Origin: a virus
Virus record (IMG/VR): IMGVR_UViG_3300025781_000094
Span: 1-20,893 of that record
Length of the DNA stretch: 20,893 nt
Reading direction: 5' to 3' (one strand)
Shown here in pieces: positions 2,867 to 19,971 of the stretch. Both the position numbers and the translations under genes were made by a program. The notes beneath the pieces were generated by a model, which was not told the DNA's origin, did not search any database, and saw nothing but the letters and a program-made list of their open reading frames with translations. Each line of letters starts with the position of its first letter. Within the stretch, counting starts at the first letter, position 1.

Positions 2867-5742
2867 TATTGTTCCTCAGTGGGTGGTTGGGATTGAGCGG
2901 CTTGCTGCTGTTGTGCCATCTGCTGCTCATGTTGCTGCTGTGATTGTTGTAAACCTTGTGCATGTTGCTGCGCTGTCTGTTGCATCTGTTGGGCATGTTG
3001 CTGCTGTGATTGCTCCAACTCAATTTGATTTTTAACCTGCTGCGCCTGTTGTTCAAATTGTTGTTGCTGTGTGCGGATGCCATGCTCACGAATATCTTGC
3101 TCAGCCGTTTGGATTGCCTGCATGGCAGATAGATCCTGCTCATGCTCTAACTGCATCTGGGTAGCATCAAACTGTGCACCGGCGGTGATCTGTGCCACAC
3201 GTTCTCTTGCGGCGTTGTTGATGTTAGCCATCGCAATATTGGTAGCATTTTTCTGGCTGTCGATATTGGTCTGGGTCTGATACTTAGCTTGTAGCTCTTG
3301 AACTTTTTGTTGCAGCTGCGCAATCTTGATCTGATAATCTTGAGATTGTTTTTGATTATCAAACTGCATTTGCATCTGAGCTTCTTGAGCTTTACGCTGG
3401 GTCTCAGCCATTTGTGTCTTGAGCAATACCTGTGCGGTAGGATCAGCATTTGCAGCAGCTTCTTGTTGCGCCTGCTGTGCCTGTGATACTTTCTGAGCCA
3501 AGGCATTAATTTGTTGTACGTACTGTGCCAAGTTAGCGTTGGCGTCTTGTGATACCATGTTAGACGCCAGTGCTAGTGCCTGTTGTGCCTCAATGTCTAA
3601 CGGCTGCTCTTGGTGTAAGTTTAACGTATCTTTGCCACCTGCAGCTTGCGCCACATAGGCACGCATGGATTGCAAATAGTGTAATGTTAAGTGTTGCTTA
3701 ATGTGCTCTAAAGCATGAGGTGCAAAAGCAGGACCAATAACAGGGTTGCCGCCGTAAGCTGGATTATTCGCATATTCTAAATGGATCTTAATGTGTGCAA
3801 TATGATCTTGATCTGGATACGCCGCAGCAGGGCGGCCCATGGTCATCGATACGTTTTCTAATGCCGGATTAGATTCGTTAGCGCCCTGTGGGTTTGGTAA
3901 TATTTCTTCGATGTTCGGCACCTTAAGTTGCTGTAACATGCGACGATAAATAGAACGCAGATCAAACATTCCGGGAGGGGCGGATGAACCCATCTGCAAC
4001 AACGCTTGTGTTTGAGCCAATCGTTGTGTTTCAGAGAAGATGTTAGGATCAGATACAGGACGAACGTCGTCGTTGTATGCAAAGTCACGTACCTTAATCT
4101 CTTCACCAGATTGGTTGTCCATCTCTTCCAAGTACCAGTGATTGATACGGGAGATGATCTTTAATGATTTAGCTTGGCTGCGATGTAAGCGTGCGTGAAT
4201 GCTGGAGAATACCTTTGCACCTTGCTCGATCAGAGCTTGGGTGGTGCCCACCGGTGTGTTGGCGTTGGCATCTTGAATTTTTTCTTCTGCGGTGGTAACC
4301 ACGCCCTTAGCGGCATCTGTTAACCATCCAAGCAAATTAAATAATGTCTGTGATGGTGGATTGAATGGCATTGCCATCGCAATCTTACGTACATCGTCAA
4401 CGCCCGGAGCGCCTTCGATCTCAATTACTTGAGTGGGTTCAATTCGGTCACTTTGGCCACCAATGCGTCCACCTTTGAGTTTAAGCATCGTCTGGCTGTT
4501 GTTGATATGAGCAGCATCAAGCAGAGCGCGTAAAGTACCAGTAAGAGCAGCGCTGAGGCCGCCAATAAGATGGGGGAGGCCAATAGCATAAGCACCGCGC
4601 CAAGGTATGAATTTGAACTCAACATACCAGTCAAGTTTTTCGAGCTTTTCATCGTTTGCATCCCAGTTGCGGTACAACGCCAGCACCTTACTGCTGGTCT
4701 CGTCAATAGTTAAAATGTATGGCGCACGTTTGCCGTTGGTTAGTGGATCATCTTCTAAACGAATAAAGCAGGTGATCTCATATACACGACGCAATCCGTC
4801 AATATTAACCGACGGAATATCTTTACCTTCGATCTTGTTGTTAGCCTTTTCAGCTTCGGTCTGATCGTTCAGTGGTGCGTCAGAGGTAGATTGGTAAATA
4901 TTATCTACGTCACGATAGATACCATCCTCAACACGTTTGAGGAATATATCTTCGGTAATGTCTTGCTGTTCTGTTACACGTTGTGCCGTGTAAAAGTTGG
5001 TCGATGAGAACGGTAGGTAGATGTTATCGATCGGTACCCACTCACACATCGGACGTTTTTGTTCTGTATCAAAGCGCCATTTAAGGAACTGTGATCCACC
5101 AAGTGGCAACTGAGTGAGCAGCTGCTCCATCTCGTCGCGGTATTCTGGAACCTGCTCGGTGAGCTGCCAGTTAAGGAAGTTGGTCTTACGGTCGGCGGTT
5201 TCTTCTTTGTAACGATTTGCCTCGCCCTTGATGTTAGACTTTACAATCCCTTCAGGTGGCAACAGTTCGCGTGCAGACGCGGCAGCAAAGTCAACACATG
5301 ACTCTGCCATGACTGGGTGGACGACTTTGGAAGCTCCGTCGAACGTGGCTCCTCCGGGCGCGTCCTTGCCTAGACCGGTACGGCGCAGGCCGTCTTCGTA
5401 TTGTTTATCTCGTTGCTTGCGTGATTCTTTGTCTACGTCAATGTAGTCAAGGTATTCAATCGCCAATGACTGTAGTACGCTTTCGTCAAACTCTTCTGCC
5501 AAGTTCGCATAGAACTCAGGATTTTTTAGTGGGCTTGATTTTTCTTGAAAGTTAACTACTACCGAACCATCTTCCAGTTCAATGACTTCCTGCTCTACCT
5601 CATCTGGGTCTAAGCCGAGGATGTCTTCATACTGCTCCATCTCGGCATCTTGTTCTTCTGCCAAGCCAAGGTCCTCTTCGCGAGTATCCAAGCCGGGTAG
5701 ATTGCCGCCAGATTGTAGTGGGATAGTTGGTTGTTGTGCCAT
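2866..5742 (-). CDS. Portal (head-tail connector) protein with long Gln-rich C-terminal tail
   Basis: 958 residues from the ATG at 5742. Residues 1-75 are acidic and low in complexity. The portal core runs from about 75 to 700, with conserved-looking stretches such as GATFDGASKVVHPVMAESC, LLPPEGIVKS, LPLGGSQFLKWRFD, VPIDNIYLPF, a GAYAIGLPHLIGGLSAALTG stretch, and VGTTQALIEQGAKVFSSIHA in the clip/stem region. These match the large portal family of short-tailed, P22-like phages. The ring of twelve copies is the DNA entry vertex and docks TerL. Residues about 700-958 are almost entirely Gln, Ala, Met and Glu heptads, probably a helical barrel projecting into the capsid as in P22, though unusually long and Gln-rich. 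It sits directly downstream of TerL (63-nt gap), the classic order. Confidence 0.9.
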   Translation of the reverse strand: MAQQPTIPLQSGGNLPGLDTREEDLGLAEEQDAEMEQYEDILGLDPDEVEQEVIELEDGSVVVNFQEKSSPLKNPEFYANLAEEFDESVLQSLAIEYLDYIDVDKESRKQRDKQYEDGLRRTGLGKDAPGGATFDGASKVVHPVMAESCVDFAAASARELLPPEGIVKSNIKGEANRYKEETADRKTNFLNWQLTEQVPEYRDEMEQLLTQLPLGGSQFLKWRFDTEQKRPMCEWVPIDNIYLPFSSTNFYTAQRVTEQQDITEDIFLKRVEDGIYRDVDNIYQSTSDAPLNDQTEAEKANNKIEGKDIPSVNIDGLRRVYEITCFIRLEDDPLTNGKRAPYILTIDETSSKVLALYRNWDANDEKLEKLDWYVEFKFIPWRGAYAIGLPHLIGGLSAALTGTLRALLDAAHINNSQTMLKLKGGRIGGQSDRIEPTQVIEIEGAPGVDDVRKIAMAMPFNPPSQTLFNLLGWLTDAAKGVVTTAEEKIQDANANTPVGTTQALIEQGAKVFSSIHARLHRSQAKSLKIISRINHWYLEEMDNQSGEEIKVRDFAYNDDVRPVSDPNIFSETQRLAQTQALLQMGSSAPPGMFDLRSIYRRMLQQLKVPNIEEILPNPQGANESNPALENVSMTMGRPAAAYPDQDHIAHIKIHLEYANNPAYGGNPVIGPAFAPHALEHIKQHLTLHYLQSMRAYVAQAAGGKDTLNLHQEQPLDIEAQQALALASNMVSQDANANLAQYVQQINALAQKVSQAQQAQQEAAANADPTAQVLLKTQMAETQRKAQEAQMQMQFDNQKQSQDYQIKIAQLQQKVQELQAKYQTQTNIDSQKNATNIAMANINNAARERVAQITAGAQFDATQMQLEHEQDLSAMQAIQTAEQDIREHGIRTQQQQFEQQAQQVKNQIELEQSQQQHAQQMQQTAQQHAQGLQQSQQQHEQQMAQQQQAAQSQPPTEEQ
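2928..3012 (-). repeat. Repeated low-complexity segment in the portal tail
   Basis: A 19-bp unit, CATGTTGCTGCTGTGATTG on the plus strand, occurs exactly twice (2928-2946 and 2994-3012) inside a CTG/TTG-rich stretch that encodes Gln-Ser-Gln-Gln-Gln-His-Ala-like repeats. It looks like slippage or unit duplication extending the Gln-rich portal C-terminus. Confidence 0.6.
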
Positions 5743-5805: not shown

Positions 5806-7245
5806 CTATTGTGCATAGGGATTAGGTGTACGTTTGCGGTTATCGTCCGCGTAGCTATAATCGCGTGCTGGCAGGTAATCTAGCTGAATCCAGCCAGAAT
5901 CGCGTAAAACACGCAGGGCCTGTGATAATGAGTCCACATAGTCATCATGTCCGCCCGCCTCTGGGAACGAACATACCTGACGTATAAAGCGTTTAGACCA
6001 GTCGGCAAAGTCGCCGCGTTGCTGGGAATCTTCTGGAATAAACACCTTACCCTTGGCAACGAGGGGTGCCACGATGTTTAAGCGCTGTACCTTATCGGCA
6101 CGTCCGGGGTTGTATCCACGCACCGGAACGCCAGCACCTTGTAGCTCTTGTATCAATGAGATACCCGCCGACTTATCTTCCATCAGGATCAGGTCTGCCT
6201 TACGGCCCTTACCAAAGTCATTATCTGCGCCGTAGACCACCTCTTTAAAGTCGTCAATCACCTTGCGACGTAGCTCTGGGTAGGACAGGTGATGGTCCCA
6301 CGCATCTAAGAGGATGATTGCCGTGCCAGCATCTTCCTGTTCAAACACGCCCCAGATGGTGCATGCCGTGGGGTCGTTCATGGTCTTTTCGCTGGTAGCC
6401 GGATCGTAGCTGGCAATCACGTATTCCAAGTTAGGCGTGGGCTTAGATGCCGGCCACATGCGAAACTGTTTACGTTTGATAATACCTGCAGCTTCTGGGT
6501 CAAGGATCTCACCATAGATCTCTTGCCTGCCGATGTCGGTGCCATCATACGTCTCAAGCTGTTTGAAGAAGGTGGCAGATAAGTTTTCTTTATTATCGTA
6601 TGATGAGGCGTTTACCACATATACGTCACCGCCAACTTTACCTTCGTTAAGGTCTACAATTAATTCTTTTGGCTTGGGGGTGGTGGTGATGATTTGCTGG
6701 ACTCGCGGGATGCGCGGGTCTTTAAGGCGCAACGTGAACTGGACGCCATCGTATGCCTCGTCGAGGTAGTCGAAGGCGCACAGCTCATCAAACCATGCCC
6801 CGTGGTATTGCTTACCGCGGTAACGCTCTGGCTCGGAGGCTGGGATGCCTTGGATAATGGAGCCATTGGTAAGGGTAATTTCGAAGAGGGACTTGTTGTA
6901 GTCCCGGATGAGGCTGGGTGGGATGATGTTGAGGAGTCCTGAATCGCCTTCGAAGCAGGTGGCTCGGATGTCGTTTGACGTAGGAGCTGTGACAAGCCAG
7001 CGGGTGTTGCTGTAGTTCCAAGCCCGAATACCAATCCAATGACTAGCAGTGTGCGTCTTGCCAGACCCGCGGCCTGCGAGCATAAGGAATGTGTCATATT
7101 CTCCATCTTCTGGTTCTTTCTGGTGTGGTAGTGCCTGTATGGCCCACTTGACCTGCCAAATTGCCGCGTCCAATTGCTGCTTGGGCCAGTGGCTGTGCGA
7201 CTTGGCAAATAGTTCAAGGGTGCGTTGTTGCTTGTCTGTTAGCAT
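5806..7245 (-). CDS. Terminase large subunit (TerL)
   Basis: I start at the ATG at 7245 (MLTDKQQRTLELF), giving 479 residues. An earlier in-frame ATG at 7311 would add 22 Arg-rich residues translated from inside the Hint gene. The ATPase domain shows Walker A GRGSGKT at 58-64 and Walker B with the catalytic acid in WFDE at 151-154, followed by a TTTPKPKEL coupling motif. The RNase H-like nuclease has acidic residues in VIASYDPATSEK, LILMEDKSAG and GGHDDYVDSL, in the expected order. TerL drives ATP-powered DNA packaging through the portal and cuts the concatemer. The gene overlaps the end of the Hint ORF by 7 nt. No small terminase subunit is recognisable; the 102-aa gene upstream is only a positional candidate. 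Confidence 0.95.
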   Translation of the reverse strand: MLTDKQQRTLELFAKSHSHWPKQQLDAAIWQVKWAIQALPHQKEPEDGEYDTFLMLAGRGSGKTHTASHWIGIRAWNYSNTRWLVTAPTSNDIRATCFEGDSGLLNIIPPSLIRDYNKSLFEITLTNGSIIQGIPASEPERYRGKQYHGAWFDELCAFDYLDEAYDGVQFTLRLKDPRIPRVQQIITTTPKPKELIVDLNEGKVGGDVYVVNASSYDNKENLSATFFKQLETYDGTDIGRQEIYGEILDPEAAGIIKRKQFRMWPASKPTPNLEYVIASYDPATSEKTMNDPTACTIWGVFEQEDAGTAIILLDAWDHHLSYPELRRKVIDDFKEVVYGADNDFGKGRKADLILMEDKSAGISLIQELQGAGVPVRGYNPGRADKVQRLNIVAPLVAKGKVFIPEDSQQRGDFADWSKRFIRQVCSFPEAGGHDDYVDSLSQALRVLRDSGWIQLDYLPARDYSYADDNRKRTPNPYAQ

Positions 7246-8207
7246 GTGGGTATAAAGCCTTCTCCTACGAGAATCGTATGGTCTGACCCGGTGGTCTCCA
7301 GATGCACACACATCTGGGGCTGGATCGGTTGTATGTCCACAACATAGCGTCTGGCATGATGAACCTTTACAGGAGGCGAGACTTGGTGTTTAACCAGCTT
7401 GGTGCGGCTCTTAAAATAAATTCGATAGTTCTGATCTGCCACCGGGCGGATGCGGTGCGCCAGTGATTCTAACAAGAAACGCATCTGCCCAAACACATGC
7501 GCGTTGCGTGTCTTAAAACAAAACGTATCTTCTGCAACGTTGTACTGTTTAGGGTTGGCCGACATGATGCCAGACAACAGCTCGGTACGCTGCTCTATCG
7601 ACCCCATCAAATAATTTTCTGGGATCGTATTAATCTTTAAATCAATCTGCGGATCAATTCTGAACCGCGTCCGATTATTTTGCCGACGCTCTACTACCAC
7701 CACACGGTAGCCATAGTCACGAAACCGTTCAACCAGCTCGTCATAATCGTTGTTGCTTACCGACATCACGTTCTTAACACCGTGGCGCATAAACCAAAAC
7801 CCAAACAAGAACGGCGGTATGGGTAATGGTTGGTGTGGCAGTGCTAATGGCTTGGCGGTGGGCAACGAAAACAATTTTCTGTTGCGATAGTTGCGCAGTT
7901 CCAGTGCAGATAACGCGCCCACGCTAAAGTGCTTTAACGGCCGGCGAAATGGTTGTACGCCCTTGTATGTGCCCAGACGGTTACGATACTTTGGCGTCTC
8001 AAGCAAAAATCCCATGTGGCGATCTCCTTGCATGGTAAGGTGATCGTCAAATACAATCTCGTAGCACTCGTTCACAAAGTAGGTCTGCACTAACTTAATT
8101 TGAACCGGTGTGCCGTTTCGGTCAAACACATAGTCCCCCACCTTTAAGCGGTCGGCATATTTCCAATGGTCAAGGGTTAGTACTCGTTGGTTTGCTGTGA
8201 TTGCCAT
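7239..8207 (-). CDS. Free-standing intein-like Hint/degenerate LAGLIDADG protein
   Basis: 322 residues from the ATG at 8207. The N-terminus reads as an intein splicing block (RVLTLDHWKYADRLKVGDYV, residues 8-27) followed by a block B-like DRHMGF at 62-67. Residues 127-143 (PLPIPPFLFGFWFMRHG) and 198-218 (the YLMGSIEQRTELLSGIMSAN region) align by eye with the two LAGLIDADG motifs of intein homing endonucleases, but the acidic residue normally ending each motif is missing (MRHG for GDG, MSAN for MDTDG). The C-terminus (VVDIQPIQPQMCVHLE, then TILVGEGFIPT) is a clear intein block F/G, but it ends Thr-Cys-stop instead of His-Asn plus an extein. There is also no Cys or Ser at position 1. So it is a stand-alone ORF, probably unable to splice or cut, inserted between the 102-aa gene and TerL and overlapping both. 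Confidence 0.8.
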   Translation of the reverse strand: MAITANQRVLTLDHWKYADRLKVGDYVFDRNGTPVQIKLVQTYFVNECYEIVFDDHLTMQGDRHMGFLLETPKYRNRLGTYKGVQPFRRPLKHFSVGALSALELRNYRNRKLFSLPTAKPLALPHQPLPIPPFLFGFWFMRHGVKNVMSVSNNDYDELVERFRDYGYRVVVVERRQNNRTRFRIDPQIDLKINTIPENYLMGSIEQRTELLSGIMSANPKQYNVAEDTFCFKTRNAHVFGQMRFLLESLAHRIRPVADQNYRIYFKSRTKLVKHQVSPPVKVHHARRYVVDIQPIQPQMCVHLETTGSDHTILVGEGFIPTC

Positions 8208-8493: not shown

Positions 8494-8529
8494 AACAATT
8501 CTTTATTCCAGCCCCAAGGTTCAGACTTT

Positions 8530-8650
8530 AAATCATGTTGGGTCTGCTGGGTCTGCGGGGTCTAAACCCACTTTACCCGACACTTACGTTTTTATTTTTA
8601 AAAAAATTTTTAAAAAAGTACGTTTAGACCCAGCAGACCCAACATGATTT
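8530..8650. repeat. Long inverted repeat with 9-nt units (left copy)
   Basis: The left arm (8530-8567) and right arm (8622-8650) are complementary over 29 bp without mismatch, except that the left arm carries one extra 9-nt unit (GCGGGGTCT). The arms are built from GGGTCTGCT-like units. The 54-nt centre includes an AT-rich stretch of A and T runs near 8589-8617. The segment 8555-8646 recurs in the same orientation at 16278-16376. Possible roles are a strong RNA hairpin in the leftward leader, a terminator, or an iteron-bearing origin. Confidence 0.8.
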
Positions 8651-8828
8651 TAAGGGTAAACCCTAATAAAGTTGTTGTATTTTTACAAAAAAAATTTTAG
8701 GGTCTGTTTTGCACCAAAACGGTGCAGTATACAAAAACTTGAGGTCTGTGGGGCCCCCGCCCCGACCACCCCGATGGGACCCTAAAAGGGGGACTGGACT
8801 AAAAGAAAAGCCCCCCTCATTGCCAAGC

Positions 8829-8924: not shown

Positions 8925-8957
8925 GATAATGGGGACAGACTCGATGGGTCGCGGCAC

Positions 8958-9087
8958 AATGACCACATTGCCAGTGTGGGTATTAGGGCGCGCAACCAGT
9001 GTGGTATACTGGAGGGTTGGGCGCGCGCATAATGACCACACTTCCAGCATGGGTATTAGGGCGCGTTGACAGCGTGGCAATATGGGT
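8958..9087. repeat. Imperfect tandem repeat, 73-bp period, two copies
   Basis: Copy A starts at 8958 and copy B at 9031. Both read AATGACCACA, then TCCAG- or GCCAG-like bases, then TGGGTATTAGGGCGCG, then a GTGG. The 16-base TGGGTATTAGGGCGCG block is identical in both. Promoter-like motifs follow this block in each copy (9002-9010 in A, 9066-9094 in B). Confidence 0.7.
9002..9010 (+). promoter_or_regulatory. Extended -10 promoter motif, rightward
   Basis: TGGTATACT fits the extended -10 form TGN-TATAAT with one mismatch. No good -35 box is found 16-18 bp upstream, which is normal for extended -10 promoters because they do not rely on sigma region 4. Confidence 0.45.
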
Positions 9088-9413: not shown

Positions 9414-9684
9414 TATACTATTGATTCTGTGATCCAAATGACTATAATCGTTACTGTAGTAACGCAGTACAGCAGTAGATAGGAAGTGCAGGTCTAATAC
9501 CTGCGACCCCCAAAGATACTATTTAGACCAGCAGTACTAGATGGCGTGCAGATCTAGATGTCGAATGGCTTGGTACCCTTAGCATGGATCCGAGTCTCAA
9601 TAGTGAGGGGATGAGCTAGTAATGCTCAGAGCGTCTTGTATCAGGGCGCTCGAGGCAGTACTAACCCACCATAGGAGATACACC
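9414..9684 (+). other. Hairpin-rich leader before the first rightward gene
   Basis: This 270-nt stretch has several perfect short hairpins: GTTAC/GTAAC near 9450-9463, GCAGG/CCTGC with a 7-nt loop at 9488-9504, GGTCTAA pairing with TTAGACC about 25 nt later, CTAGAT/ATCTAG near 9538-9558, and GAGC/GCTC near 9613-9627. It may be a structured 5' leader. I could not fit it to a tRNA, a hammerhead or a riboswitch class I know. The CUGANGA and GAAA cores of the ribozymes downstream are absent here. Confidence 0.4.
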
Positions 9685-9867
9685 ATGTACCAAGACATCA
9701 ACGGCAATCAATTCGATTCGTATGAGCAGGCAGTGCGCCACTACGGCGGTGATCTATACGATGACGTTGACGATTACGAGGAAGTCGGCGATCACGCTGT
9801 ATGGCTGTACTACGCGCAGTTCCCAGTACAGAATGATCAGCGCGAAGACTTCGCTCGCTGTTATTAA
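9685..9867 (+). CDS. Small acidic protein, 60 aa, first gene of the rightward operon
   Basis: I chose the ATG at 9685 because ATAGGAG lies 9 nt upstream; the longer in-frame start at 9622 has no such site. The 60 residues begin MYQDINGNQFDSYEQAVRHYG and contain an acidic, Tyr-rich centre (DLYDDVDDYEEVGDH). No family is recognised. Its stop codon lies two bases before the first hammerhead ribozyme, so the 3' end of its mRNA would be set by self-cleavage at 9894/9895. Small acidic early phage proteins are often inhibitors of host enzymes or DNA mimics, but nothing here proves that. Confidence 0.75.
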   Translation: MYQDINGNQFDSYEQAVRHYGGDLYDDVDDYEEVGDHAVWLYYAQFPVQNDQREDFARCY

Positions 9868-9869
9868 CA

Positions 9870-9922
9870 GGTCGAAACCAGCTGTCAGCTGGTCTAAGCG
9901 TTAGGCGCTTACTGAAGAGACC
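9870..9922 (+). ncRNA. Type II hammerhead ribozyme, copy 1
   Basis: Read as RNA: stem II strand GGUC (9870-9873), GAAA (9874-9877), stem III CCAGCU-guc-AGCUGG (9878-9892), U16.1 and C17 (9893-9894), stem I UAAGCG-uuagg-CGCUUA (9895-9911), core CUGAAGA (9912-9918), stem II strand GACC (9919-9922). Every paired base is Watson-Crick. The core has A at position 7, which the family consensus CUGANGA allows. Cleavage is expected after C9894, giving a 2',3'-cyclic phosphate and a 5'-OH. It starts 2 nt after the stop codon of the 60-aa gene and ends 29 nt before the next ATG, leaving the AGGAG site of that gene free. Confidence 0.92.
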
Positions 9923-9951
9923 ATCAACCCTTTGCAATTAGGAGATTCAAT

Positions 9952-10593
9952 ATGACTTCATCAATTCAAACACGCGGTCACTGCCAGTGCTGTGGACGCC
10001 AGCAGGCAGTTCGTCATGGCATCTCAGCCCACGGCTACACCGTGGCTAACGGCTGGTTCCAAGGCGTATGCCAAGGTCACCGCTACGCCCCACTGGAAAA
10101 GAATCGCGCCACTACCGACCGCATGATCGCTGAGATCCGCGAGCAGGCTGTAGCGTTGCGCATCAAGGCTGACGAGACGCTAGCCGGTAAGCATGACCCA
10201 GCTGAATACAGCACTGGACGTAGCCAGTTCGTGGACGGCAAGCGCGTTATGATCAAGGCGCCATTCAGTGAGGCTAATGAATATCGCCAGCAAGACATTC
10301 GCAAGCAGTTAGCATGGGCGCTCAACTCCAAGGCTGACGCAGGCGAGGACTTCGTTAAGTTTATGAGCGCACTGGCTGACAAGGTGCACGGCACTGAGCT
10401 TGTAACAGTAGCCAAGCCACAGCCAGCCGAGCGCATCCAAGCAGGTGAGAAGCGCGTCAACGCCAAGGGCTTAGTCATGACAGCAGTGCGTCAGGACGGT
10501 CAGCGCCTGTATTTCAAATACCAGCGCGAAGATGGCAAAGAGTTCACCAGCTGGATCTCACCACGCTCTTGGCGTACCATGCAGTCTGTATAA
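9952..10593 (+). CDS. Zinc-ribbon-like phage protein, 213 aa, bracketed by ribozymes
   Basis: ATG at 9952 with TTAGGAG 10 nt upstream. The N-terminus has C11-x2-C14 (with C13) and C40-x2-H43, which fits a small zinc ribbon (HCQCCGRQQAV ... GVCQGH); similar N-terminal domains recur in phage early proteins. Residues 50-160 are charged and helical. The C-terminal 45 residues (VNAKGLVMTAVRQDGQRLYFKYQ...) look like a small beta domain. No enzyme motif is seen. Hammerhead copies 1 and 2 lie on either side, so self-cleavage would release the gene as a discrete RNA spanning 9895-10619. Nucleic-acid binding is plausible from the zinc ribbon but unproven. Confidence 0.8.
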   Translation: MTSSIQTRGHCQCCGRQQAVRHGISAHGYTVANGWFQGVCQGHRYAPLEKNRATTDRMIAEIREQAVALRIKADETLAGKHDPAEYSTGRSQFVDGKRVMIKAPFSEANEYRQQDIRKQLAWALNSKADAGEDFVKFMSALADKVHGTELVTVAKPQPAERIQAGEKRVNAKGLVMTAVRQDGQRLYFKYQREDGKEFTSWISPRSWRTMQSV

Positions 10594-10595
10594 CA

Positions 10596-10648
10596 GGTCG
10601 AAACAGTCGCGAGGCTGTCTACACGTAAGGCGTGTACTGATGATGACC
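10596..10648 (+). ncRNA. Type II hammerhead ribozyme, copy 2 (one extra U next to stem II)
   Basis: GGUC (10596-10599), GAAA (10600-10603), stem III CAGUC-gcga-GGCUG with one G-U pair (10604-10617), U16.1 and C17 (10618-10619), stem I UACACG-uaagg-CGUGUA (10620-10636), core CUGAUGA (10637-10643), an unpaired U at 10644, then GACC (10645-10648). Relative to copies 1 and 3 the stems carry compensatory changes, while GGUC, GAAA, UC, the core and GACC are kept. The extra U between A9 and stem II is a deviation that could slow cleavage. Expected cleavage is after C10619. The ribozyme begins 2 nt after the stop of the 213-aa gene. Confidence 0.85.
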
Positions 10649-10665
10649 AACCAATAGGAGGCTAT

Positions 10666-10842
10666 ATGCCAAAAGAATTTACCGTTACTGAAAGTGATTT
10701 AAACAACCGCCTTGACCTGCTACTTGATAGCGCGGTCAAACACCTCAATACTTTTGAAGAGCGCTCTGAGCACTTCTACCAAGCCCGCTCTATGGTGTGG
10801 CAAATCGAGGCGATTCTTGAGCGTCTCCAAATAGCGGACTAA
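10666..10842 (+). CDS. Small helical protein, 58 aa, bracketed by ribozymes
   Basis: ATG at 10666, preceded by ATAGGAGG with 5 nt between. The protein begins MPKEFTVTESDLNNRLDLLLD and ends ILERLQIAD. It is nearly all amphipathic helix, slightly acidic, with no Cys. No family is recognised. Ribozyme copy 2 lies just upstream and copy 3 starts 3 nt after its stop codon, so self-cleavage would release it on a 250-nt RNA (10620-10869). The SD, start and length support a real gene despite its size. Confidence 0.75.
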   Translation: MPKEFTVTESDLNNRLDLLLDSAVKHLNTFEERSEHFYQARSMVWQIEAILERLQIAD

Positions 10843-10845
10843 ACA

Positions 10846-10897
10846 GGTCGAAACCAGCGCGAGCTGGTCTATACGTTACGCGTATACTGATGAGACC
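10846..10897 (+). ncRNA. Type II hammerhead ribozyme, copy 3 (consensus core)
   Basis: GGUC (10846-10849), GAAA (10850-10853), stem III CCAGC-gcga-GCUGG (10854-10867), U16.1 and C17 (10868-10869), stem I UAUACG-uuacg-CGUAUA (10870-10886), core CUGAUGA (10887-10893), GACC (10894-10897). All pairs are Watson-Crick, the stem III loop is a GNRA tetraloop, and the catalytic core is the textbook sequence, so this copy is the most likely to be active. Expected cleavage is after C10869. It lies between the 58-aa gene and the gene at 10933. Confidence 0.93.
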
Positions 10898-10932: not shown

Positions 10933-11541
10933 ATGACCCCATACGCAAAATGCTCACGCAAGGGCACTCAAGGCTACGCCGTTATTTGGGCGCACCGTGA
11001 CCACACCAGCGCCTGCGCTAATACTCGCTTTTACTTAACATTCAACCAGCGCGATACTGCGCCTAGCGTGGACGCTGAGTCCTACCCAACCATGGAATGG
11101 GCTAAGCAGTACGCTCACAGCTGGTTGCGTGATCAGCCAGCCAAGCAGGCGCCCCGTGGCTTTGCCTTTGCCAGCGCTAATCCTCGCACCGTGGACGGCG
11201 AGTCCAATGACTGCGTCGTACGCGCCCTGTCACTCGCATTTAATAAGCCATACGCTGAGGTGCATGCCGTGTGCCAGCGCGCTGGACGTACCAAGGGTCG
11301 CGGTATGAATAACCTGATGATCAACAAGGCTATCGCTGAGCTCACTGGACGGACGGACGCCCAGCTCCAGCGCCAGCAACGCGCTCAGACGTTCACCACG
11401 TTTGCCCGTGACCATAAGGTAGGCAACTACATTGTGATCAAGCGCGGTCACGCTGTAGCGTTGATTGACGGTGTATTCCACGACGCGGGCTCGATTGGCG
11501 AGCCACGTGCCATTGTAAAATCAGTATTCAGAGTCAAATAA
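10933..11541 (+). CDS. Protein with C39/papain-like cysteine peptidase-type domain
   Basis: ATG at 10933 with CTAGGAG 7 nt upstream; 202 residues. Residues 1-75 form a separate N-terminal part (RFYLTFNQRDTAPS...), perhaps a small beta domain. From about 85 the sequence reads VDGESNDCVVRALSLAFNKPY, with a candidate nucleophile C94 at the start of a helix, then NYIVIKRGHAVALIDGVFHDAG with a candidate H173 and D184. This Cys ... His ... Asp order and the 'GHAVALIDG' strand pair are typical of the papain-like/C39 fold found in phage proteins. It could cleave a host protein or be a catalytically altered binder. Its mRNA 5' part begins with the 3' product of ribozyme copy 3. Confidence 0.7.
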   Translation: MTPYAKCSRKGTQGYAVIWAHRDHTSACANTRFYLTFNQRDTAPSVDAESYPTMEWAKQYAHSWLRDQPAKQAPRGFAFASANPRTVDGESNDCVVRALSLAFNKPYAEVHAVCQRAGRTKGRGMNNLMINKAIAELTGRTDAQLQRQQRAQTFTTFARDHKVGNYIVIKRGHAVALIDGVFHDAGSIGEPRAIVKSVFRVK

Positions 11542-16171: not shown

Positions 16172-16257
16172 TAAAACAGGTCACGCAATACATCATGTTT
16201 ACAGCCATGTGGGCAGTATTGTTATATTACTTATTACTTATAGTTATGGCTATATAA
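16168..16257 (+). CDS. Single-span membrane peptide, 29 aa
   Basis: An ATG at 16168 overlaps the preceding stop (ATGA) and opens 29 codons: MIKQVTQYIMFTAMWAVLLY followed by YLLLIVMAI and a TAA at 16255-16257. From residue 9 to the end it is one hydrophobic helix after a short basic start, so it should sit in the inner membrane. The coupled overlap and the clean transmembrane pattern are the evidence. It could be a small lysis- or superinfection-related peptide; this is unproven. Confidence 0.55.
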   Translation: MIKQVTQYIMFTAMWAVLLYYLLLIVMAI

Positions 16258-16277
16258 CTAAAAGTCATGCTAGGAAT

Positions 16278-16376
16278 GCTGGGTCTAAACCCACTTTATC
16301 CCGAACTTACGTTTTTTATTTTTAAAATTTTTAAAATAAATAGAGATAGACCCAACAGACCCAGCAGACCCAACAT
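16278..16376. repeat. Dispersed repeat (right copy) of the long repeat at 8555-8646
   Basis: It shares GGGTCTAAACCCACTTTA, ACTTACGTTTTT, an AT core and the closing AGACCCAGCAGACCCAACAT-type end with the left copy, in the same orientation and 7.7 kb away. The right arm has three GACCCA-type units; the left arm is shorter than in the left copy. The two copies flank the ribozyme and early-gene block. Confidence 0.75.
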
Positions 16377-18847: not shown

Positions 18848-19011
18848 CACCAGCACAGGTAGCATATAAAAAATGGAAAGATTCTCATCTAGTTAACATG
18901 CGTGTATATACAGACGAGCAGATGTTTGAGCTGGGCTACAATGCGCGCAGTGATGAGATCGAAGAGCTGTTAAAAGAAGTAGAACAAAAACAAAAGAAAG
19001 TTAAAAAATGA
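18844..19011 (+). CDS. Small basic coiled-coil protein, 55 aa
   Basis: ATG at 18844 overlaps the primase-helicase stop (ATGA), with AAGGAG about 10 nt upstream, and the TGA overlaps the next ATG at 19008. It begins MTPAQVAYKKWKDSHLVNMR and ends in a Glu/Lys helix (EIEELLKEVEQKQKKVKK). The overlaps and codon pattern make it a probable gene. No family is recognised; it may bind nucleic acid or the helicase. Confidence 0.65.
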   Translation: MTPAQVAYKKWKDSHLVNMRVYTDEQMFELGYNARSDEIEELLKEVEQKQKKVKK

Positions 19012-19493
19012 GTGACCTACAAAAGTTTATGGAGTCGTGGTATGCAAAAGGATCGCCCATCCGCCCACCGTTTGAGCACGCAGTACATTGCACCGACATG
19101 GCATACGCCCTGACCATCTATCGTGAGGGGCAGTATCAGATCGAGCTGTACACCTGCCTACCAAACACCGAGACCAAGGTACACAGCCACCCCGGAATTG
19201 AATCCATCGCGGTGTATTTGGCAGGTAACTTATCGTTTGCTCGCATGGGTGGGCAGTTCAGAGATCTATCTCAATACCAAAAAGCCGCGCCCGATGGGAC
19301 GCACATGCTGTTAGGTAAGTTCGTAGATTCAGTGGACGGTACAGATCATGCACTTCGGGTGCACAAAGAGGGCGGTGCGTTTTTGTTGTTTCAAAAGTGG
19401 CACGACAAAACACCAACCTCCGTGGCGATTGAGTACGATGGGCAGACGCTAGGACACATTCACGATGAGACCATTAAAAATGCAATGGAATAA
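19008..19493 (+). CDS. Cupin-like protein, first of a tandem pair
   Basis: 161 residues, ATG at 19008 overlapping the previous stop. A cupin motif 1 is visible at about 55-75: KVHSHPGIESIAVYLAGNL, with HxH, a Glu three residues on and a Gly after seven more, a usual metal-binding set. A later GTHMLLGKFVDSVDGTDHAL segment gives another His, as in motif 2. The protein aligns by eye along most of its length with the next gene (IRPPF, YREG, ELY, the HxHP strand, GNLxF, HMLLGK, GGAFL). Cupins bind a metal and small substrates or act as binding modules; the substrate here is unknown. No transmembrane segment or signal peptide is visible. Confidence 0.65.
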   Translation: MSDLQKFMESWYAKGSPIRPPFEHAVHCTDMAYALTIYREGQYQIELYTCLPNTETKVHSHPGIESIAVYLAGNLSFARMGGQFRDLSQYQKAAPDGTHMLLGKFVDSVDGTDHALRVHKEGGAFLLFQKWHDKTPTSVAIEYDGQTLGHIHDETIKNAME

Positions 19494-19971
19494 TGTAGAA
19501 GAGTTTATGGGCTGGTGGCTTGAGACGCGGATCATTCGTCCGCCGTTCAAGGACACCATGTTCACCACAGACTTTGCGCAGTCATTTTGTTTGTATCGTG
19601 AGGGTCGTTTTCAGGTAGAGCTGTATTTGCTCAAAGAAAACATCACCACACCATTTCACCGGCACCCTAACGTGGACTCCATGTTTTTGTATTTAGGTGG
19701 TAACTTGGAATTTGGTTTACCGGATAAGACGTTTACAAACACACAAGAATTTCAAAAAGAAGGTGAACATGGCGCGCACATGTTGTTAGGTAAAATAGCG
19801 GTTGCCATGGATGGAGAACTGCATTCGGTGCGTACGTATGACCAAGGCGGTGCATTTTTAAGTTTTGAATATTGGCAGGACAAAGATCCAAGTTCGGTGG
19901 TAGTAAACTGGGACGGTGAGTATGACGGTCCGGTGCACATAAAGACGGTAACTGCAAATGAAAAACTTTAG
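19480..19971 (+). CDS. Cupin-like protein, second of a tandem pair
   Basis: I prefer the ATG at 19480 (MQWNNVEEFMGWW), which aligns best with the start of the paralogue; an in-frame ATG at 19465 has AGGA 10 nt upstream and cannot be excluded. The product is 163 residues. It keeps TPFHRHPNVDSMFLYLGGNL, but the motif 1 Glu is replaced by Asp, and keeps GAHMLLGK and GGAFLSFEYW. Divergence from the first copy is high (I estimate well under half identical), so the duplication is old. The two may form a heterodimer or a two-domain assembly. It overlaps the upstream gene by 14 nt and the next gene by 14 nt. Confidence 0.65.
   Translation: MQWNNVEEFMGWWLETRIIRPPFKDTMFTTDFAQSFCLYREGRFQVELYLLKENITTPFHRHPNVDSMFLYLGGNLEFGLPDKTFTNTQEFQKEGEHGAHMLLGKIAVAMDGELHSVRTYDQGGAFLSFEYWQDKDPSSVVVNWDGEYDGPVHIKTVTANEKL

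What the first reader, a model, noticed from the sequence alone, without database searches (positions are those of the whole stretch)
9870..10897. Three tandem type II hammerhead ribozymes, one in each of three consecutive intergenic spacers of a phage operon
Each spacer folds as GGUC, GAAA, hairpin stem III, UC, hairpin stem I, CUGANGA, GACC. This is the complete type II hammerhead core with the expected cleavage nucleotide C. Stems I and III differ in sequence between copies but keep pairing: stem I is UAAGCG/CGCUUA, UACACG/CGUGUA and UAUACG/CGUAUA. The core is constant. Hammerheads in phages and bacteria are known, but a regular array punctuating successive genes of one operon is, as far as I know, not a described arrangement.
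Basis: partly seen in the sequence, partly recalled or inferred. Interest (0 to 1): 0.96.

Follow-up and report, generated by a model that had tools for sequence, protein, structure and literature searches.

The report
Hammerhead ribozymes between phage genes
Three tiny self-cutting RNAs sit in the gaps between successive genes of a virus of bacteria, each starting right after one gene's stop signal and ending just before the next gene's start; this arrangement is known in outline, but here it follows a strict layout shared by dozens of related viruses, which makes its purpose testable.

Summary
Three complete type II hammerhead motifs lie at 9870-9922, 10596-10648 and 10846-10897 (+), with predicted cleavage after C9894, C10619 and C10869. 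A descriptor finds them 3 times in the window and 0 times in 1000 shuffles. A covariance model from relatives scores them 70.7-78.5 bits. In 146 distinct relatives the catalytic core is invariant, the cut nucleotide is C or A, and the stems covary strongly. The claim that such arrays are undescribed is wrong: Perreault et al. 2011 (PMC3088659) reported clustered hammerheads flanking phage genes, with cleavage in vitro and in E. coli.

What looks new: (i) a short-loop subtype without the usual type II pseudoknot, missed by Rfam; (ii) a strict stop-codon / ribozyme / ribosome-site module; (iii) arrays of up to 11 copies; (iv) in a phage group marked by an undescribed leader hairpin, ribozymes fill the promoter-proximal spacers (78, 57, 28, 8, 3, 0%) whatever genes lie between; (v) a copy in the orthologous spacer of an isolated Burkholderia phage.

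Most likely function, inferred: co-transcriptional cutting of an early polycistronic mRNA into single-gene messages with hairpin-capped ends. Catalysis was not tested.

The parts
9870..9922 (+). type II hammerhead motif, copy 1 (cleavage expected between C9894 and U9895); stem II GGUC/GACC, stem III CCAGC/GCUGG, stem I UAAGCG/CGCUUA, loop I UUAGG
   Evidence: sequence; descriptor and null; covariance model 70.7 bits, E 4e-16; ortholog with compensatory stem changes in L113
10596..10648 (+). type II hammerhead motif, copy 2 (cleavage expected between C10619 and U10620); extra U between A9 and G10.1
   Evidence: covariance model 72.8 bits; Rfam RF02276 29.4 bits, below its cut-off of 37; orthologs in L112 and Burkholderia phage Karil-Mokiny-1, both with the extra U
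10846..10897 (+). type II hammerhead motif, copy 3 (cleavage expected between C10869 and U10870)
   Evidence: covariance model 78.5 bits, E 5e-18
9617..9664 (+). conserved leader hairpin UAGUARUGCUCAGAGC..GCUCGAGGCAGUACUAA in front of the first gene; not in Rfam
   Evidence: 52 viral stretches; structure and covariation in the apical stem; 34 of 37 copies with at least 1.5 kb downstream sequence are followed by a hammerhead, none preceded by one within 3 kb
9421..9448 (+). candidate sigma-70-type promoter TTGATT-16-TATAAT for the operon (weak: number of such sites in the region is at the chance level)
9685..9867 (+). gene 1, 60 aa, unknown; stop UAA ends 2 nt before copy 1
9952..10593 (+). gene 2, 213 aa, PHROG 17208, unknown function; stop UAA ends 2 nt before copy 2
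10666..10842 (+). gene 3, 58 aa, unknown; stop UAA ends 3 nt before copy 3
   Evidence: family c15
10933..11541 (+). gene 4, 202 aa, PHROG 3754, unknown function; no ribozyme in the spacer after it

Best explanation
The three elements are self-cleaving type II hammerhead ribozymes of a short-loop subtype. They cut the nascent early polycistronic mRNA of this phage once in each of its first three intergenic spacers, after C9894, C10619 and C10869. Because cleavage in a type II hammerhead falls between two closed hairpins, each upstream message ends in the stem III hairpin (2',3'-cyclic phosphate, one unpaired C) and each downstream message begins with the fully paired stem I hairpin (5'-OH) just in front of its ribosome-binding site. 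The result is single-gene messages with hairpin-protected ends, which uncouples the promoter-proximal genes from each other in stability and dosage. Shown here: motif, core invariance, covariation, position between stop codon and ribosome-binding site, conservation in orthologous spacers, restriction to promoter-proximal spacers. Inferred: catalysis (from the family), processing in vivo, end protection.
For: Core positions invariant in 146 distinct relatives, position 17 C (132) or A (14), never G. 590 double compensatory cells against 154 in shuffles, 99.8% of cells paired. RNAalifold unaided recovers the structure. 81 of 82 distinct pattern matches found without requiring stem I or stem III to pair do form stem I, and 80 of 82 form both stems. 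Stop codon of an open frame ends within 4 nt before, or on the first base of, stem II in 122 of 143; start codon with SD a median 19 nt (minimum 12) after it; both flanks tight in 88 of 120 against 21 of 1200 random positions. GNRA or YNCG tetraloops in 89 of 116 four-base stem III loops, i.e. selection for a very stable hairpin at the future 3' end. Orthologous spacers keep the ribozyme with compensatory changes. Related tandem phage hammerheads cleave in vitro and in E. coli (PMC3088659).
Against: No cleavage experiment on this subtype could be run or was found in the papers searched. All three copies are below Rfam's cut-off. Copy 2 has an extra U at a core junction. The loop I/tail pseudoknot that speeds known type II ribozymes is absent. 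No transcript data; end protection is unproved, and 5'-OH ends could equally destabilise. Some spacers in the same phage group lack the ribozyme (L113, L168, L171, L221).
Confidence: 0.68

Rival explanations
1. Translation-gated switch: the ribozymes are active, but a ribosome finishing the upstream gene covers the stem II 5' strand and GAAA (the stop codon is 0-4 nt away), so cutting happens only when the upstream gene is not being read to its end. Cleavage then reports translation of the upstream gene.
For: Stop codon within 4 nt before, or overlapping, stem II in 122 of 143, in 12 cases the ribozyme's own first G being the last base of the stop codon; the downstream start is never closer than 12 nt, so mainly the terminating ribosome should overlap the fold (ribosome footprint from general knowledge).
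Against: Phage spacers are compact in general, so abutment may be mere economy; the invariant A just before stem II suits UAA/UAG stops by itself.
Confidence: 0.15
2. The ribozymes act as attenuators: cutting exposes 5'-OH ends that speed decay of distal pieces, producing a dosage gradient along the operon.
For: Ribozymes are confined to the first spacers after the leader: 32/41, 23/40, 11/39, 3/37, 1/35, then 0/86.
Against: Both new ends are closed hairpins with very stable loops, the opposite of what decay would favour; the gradient is in ribozyme presence, not in measured RNA.
Confidence: 0.1
3. Inactive relics or a dispersed boundary repeat that promotes gene shuffling by recombination at a shared sequence.
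For: Gene families between copies are shuffled among phages, and the shared string GGTCGAAAC would serve as a short homology.
Against: Relics would not keep an invariant core with compensating stems and the NUH rule; stems differ between copies of one array, which lowers homology.
Confidence: 0.04
4. Chance hairpins or transcription terminators.
For: Each element contains two hairpins.
Against: 0 hits in 1000 shuffles; no terminator-like site in the region; no U tract; one-strand core conservation.
Confidence: 0.01

Closest known systems
Clustered hammerhead ribozymes of prophages (Perreault et al. 2011, PMC3088659)
   Same: Several hammerheads in one operon flanking single genes of unknown function; proposed to cut long phage transcripts into gene-length mRNAs; tandem sets cleave in vitro and one in E. 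coli
   Different: Here arrays reach 11 copies, are mostly homogeneous in subtype, abut the stop codon, and in one phage group follow a conserved leader hairpin and thin out with distance from it
Rfam RF02276 Hammerhead_II
   Same: Same permutation (stem II open), same core, cleavage after GUC
   Different: RF02276 has a 2-bp stem II, a longer stem I loop and a 3' tail for a pseudoknot with loop I; these have a 4-bp stem II, a 6-bp stem I, a UNANG-type 5-nt loop, invariant A's flanking stem II and no pseudoknot; none of them reaches the cut-off in the loci tested
HHphage of haloviruses HF1/HF2 (in PMC3088659)
   Same: Hammerhead a short distance (13 nt) upstream of a phage gene's start codon
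   Different: Archaeal virus, structurally variant hammerhead, reported next to one helicase gene rather than as an array

Membership tests
Hammerhead ribozyme | invariant core CUGANGA ... GAA, with A15.1-U16.1 pair | tested here: met
   all three copies; 146 of 146 distinct relatives; copy 2 has one extra U after A9
Hammerhead ribozyme | NUH cleavage triplet | tested here: met
   GUC in all three copies; C 132 / A 14 among relatives, never G
Hammerhead ribozyme | three helices around the core, supported by covariation | tested here: met
Hammerhead ribozyme | Mg2+-dependent self-cleavage giving 2',3'-cyclic phosphate and 5'-OH | not testable with these tools
   needs in vitro transcription
Type II hammerhead | stems I and III closed by loops, stem II open | tested here: met
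Rfam RF02276 Hammerhead_II | score at or above gathering cut-off (37 bits) | tested here: not met
   copy 2 29.4 bits, copies 1 and 3 not listed; in 14 array loci only the long-loop copies of L088 and L093 pass
Pseudoknotted type II hammerheads (Perreault 2011) | loop I pairs with the tail 3' of stem II (4 bp or more) | tested here: not met
   19.2% own tail against 20.5% swapped tails in 146 short-loop ribozymes; long-loop controls 82% against 44%
Clustered phage hammerheads (Perreault 2011) | several hammerheads flanking genes of one phage operon, same strand | tested here: met

The most novel reading that the evidence does not exclude
A phage operon format in which the stop codon, a self-cleaving ribozyme and the ribosome-binding site form one compact unit, so that a ribosome terminating on the upstream gene directly controls whether the mRNA is cut, applied only to the promoter-proximal genes behind a dedicated leader RNA.
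Probability: 0.15. Interest if true: 0.85.

Novelty: new variant of a known kind. Interest (0 to 1): 0.6.

Why it matters
The role of hammerheads in bacteria and their phages has been called an open question (PMC6155905). The strict stop / ribozyme / ribosome-site module, the promoter-proximal gradient and the presence of a copy in an isolated phage turn it into a set of simple experiments. It also shows that the standard Rfam model misses an entire common subtype, so counts of phage hammerheads based on it are too low.

Tried and rejected
Generic forward search CTGANGA..GAAA is uninformative, because in type II the GAAA comes first. Rfam at gathering found nothing in the window. Loop I/tail pseudoknot: tested and rejected for this subtype. 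Terminator reading rejected. megablast against isolated phages found no match; six isolated relatives searched whole had no hit, one did. The search for related loci with gene 4 gave no relatives. One genome hit (L103, Maribacter) is a chance match without pairing. An AUCAG tail complementary to the core CUGAU occurs after 14 of 108 distinct ribozymes with a 4-bp stem II; a trap for the cleaved product was considered but not tested. Conservation of the outer stem of the leader hairpin in A4 is partly imposed by the search pattern; only the 13 loci, found by the 3' half alone, are free of that. The gene walk behind searches is a simple SD/start heuristic, not a gene finder; it capped ribozymes at 2.5 kb, but the uncapped list has none beyond 1.26 kb.

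Full report
Observation. The window is a 20,893-base virus record from IMG/VR with portal, terminase and GroES-like genes on the left (-) and a rightward block with a sigma-factor-like gene and a primase on the right. At the start of the rightward block, four co-directional ORFs (9685-9867, 9952-10593, 10666-10842, 10933-11541) are separated by three spacers, each holding one motif of the order GGUC, GAAA, stem III hairpin, GUC, stem I hairpin, CUGANGA, GACC. This is the type II permutation. A descriptor with core and pairing finds exactly these three, none on the other strand, and none in 1000 dinucleotide shuffles. All three fold as drawn. Rfam gives only a sub-threshold hit to RF02276 on copy 2.

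Relatives. A pattern that fixes core and stem II letters and the first two stem I pairs, with no pairing demanded elsewhere, matches 99 stretches in viral contigs and five in genomes. Of 82 distinct matches, 81 form stem I and 80 form both stem I and stem III. An alignment of 45 diverse copies gives the same structure by RNAalifold without guidance, with 12 of 16 pairs showing double changes. A covariance model recovers the three window copies at 70.7-78.5 bits. Aligned hits (146 distinct) show every core base invariant, position 17 C or A only, and 590 doubly changed paired cells against 154 expected from shuffles. The alignment is fitted to the model and so leans towards it; the 80 of 82 figure does not depend on it.

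A short-loop subtype. Outside the core, three positions are essentially invariant: A directly before stem II (146/146), U as first base of loop I (146/146) and A directly after stem II (142/146). Stem II is 4 bp and stem I 6 bp in nearly all; loop I is mostly UNANG. Loop I does not pair with the 3' tail more than swapped tails do (19.2% against 20.5%), whereas long-loop hammerheads of L093, L088 and others do (82% against 44%). I infer that a fixed-distance contact between the loop I U and the flanking A's replaces the pseudoknot. In 14 array-bearing loci Rfam detects 11 copies, all long-loop ones in L088 and L093, against roughly 60 found by the descriptor and the model.

The module. In 122 of 143 ribozymes the stop codon of an open frame ends within 4 nt before stem II or overlaps its first base, and the next start codon with a Shine-Dalgarno sequence follows at a median of 19 nt, never under 12. 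Both flanks are tight in 88 of 120 ribozymes and in 21 of 1200 random positions of the same loci. The ribozyme thus fills the whole spacer. In a ribozyme-free spacer of the same phage group, stop and start lie about a dozen bases apart (L113).

Arrays. Besides the three in the window, single contigs hold 4 (L003, L012, L019, L088), 7 (L045), 8 (L093) and 11 copies (contig of L013, read as L108, within 4.8 kb).

Leader and gradient. A 46-50 nt hairpin, UAGUARUGCUCAGAGC...GCUCGAGGCAGUACUAA, lies in front of gene 1 (9617-9664) and in 52 viral stretches. Of 37 copies with at least 1.5 kb of downstream sequence, 34 are followed by a type II hammerhead within 0.17-1.26 kb and none is preceded by one within 3 kb. 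After this leader the share of spacers with a ribozyme falls with rank: 32/41, 23/40, 11/39, 3/37, 1/35, 0/31, 0/29, 0/26. The genes in between belong to many families, though two families (c3, c15) are nearly always preceded by a ribozyme. Position in the operon rather than gene identity seems to matter most. The loci belong to one loose phage group, so they are not fully independent.

Orthologous spacers. In L113 the homologue of gene 2 (73% identity) has a ribozyme in the copy 1 position whose stems I, II and III are all changed yet paired. In L112 (76%) and in isolated Burkholderia phage Karil-Mokiny-1 (36%) the same gene is followed by a ribozyme in the copy 2 position, both with the extra U after A9 seen in copy 2. 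The insertion therefore looks maintained rather than decayed. In L112 the copy 1 position is taken by a second leader hairpin instead.

Mechanism. Cleavage of a type II hammerhead leaves a closed hairpin on each new end; types I and III leave one end single-stranded (from the geometry of the fold). Stem III loops are GNRA or YNCG in 89 of 116 four-base loops, more than catalysis needs and what a 3'-end protector would want. The best reading is cutting of an early polycistronic message into protected single-gene messages. Gating by the terminating ribosome is the most interesting alternative and is directly testable. Nothing here shows catalysis.

Known or new. Clustered hammerheads flanking phage genes, their proposed processing role and their activity in vitro and in E. 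coli were reported by Perreault et al. 2011, and a 2017 review calls their role open. The subtype, the module, the gradient, the leader association and the size of arrays are, as far as the searched library shows, not described; supplementary alignments of the 2011 paper could not be opened, so some short-loop copies may be listed there.

Noticed in passing
window 9617-9664; L112:3707-3754 and 3938-3985; 52 viral stretches: Undescribed, highly conserved hairpin RNA in front of the first gene of the operon, nearly always followed by hammerheads; in L112 it occurs a second time, in the spacer where the window has ribozyme copy 1.
   Followed up: partly
window about 9455-9616; L112:3495-3700; L113:3495-3700: Longer non-coding leader upstream of that hairpin with conserved blocks such as GTGACTAAGTACCAGCCT..ATAA.CATGTGGCAGACCTA in relatives; no Rfam match.
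   Followed up: no
window 7239-8207 (-): ORF beside the terminase that matches an early stretch (81-310) of a long terminase profile and looks to me like a Hint/intein-type domain; possibly a free-standing or broken intein.
   Followed up: no
window 8518-8662 and 16257-16376: Two related palindromic elements (AGACCCAGCAGACCCAACAT arms) of about 120-145 nt, like a small mobile repeat.
   Followed up: no
window 19008-19493 and 19465-19971: Two adjacent, seemingly paralogous genes of unknown function (repeats D7 and D18).
   Followed up: no
window 8954-9004 and 9027-9077: Direct repeat of 51 nt (80%) in the non-coding region between the divergent gene blocks.
   Followed up: no
L127:2619-2697 (PV388296.1 65080-65158, -): The deposited start of CDS0113 of Burkholderia phage Karil-Mokiny-1 (locus position 2670) lies inside the predicted ribozyme, so that start is probably misannotated.
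   Followed up: partly
L108:1946-2049 and L108:2853-2943: Hammerheads with a long or branched insertion in stem III.
   Followed up: no
L045, L046, L035, L004 and others: AUCAG directly after stem II in 14 of 108 distinct ribozymes, complementary to the core CUGAU; may trap the cleaved product.
   Followed up: no
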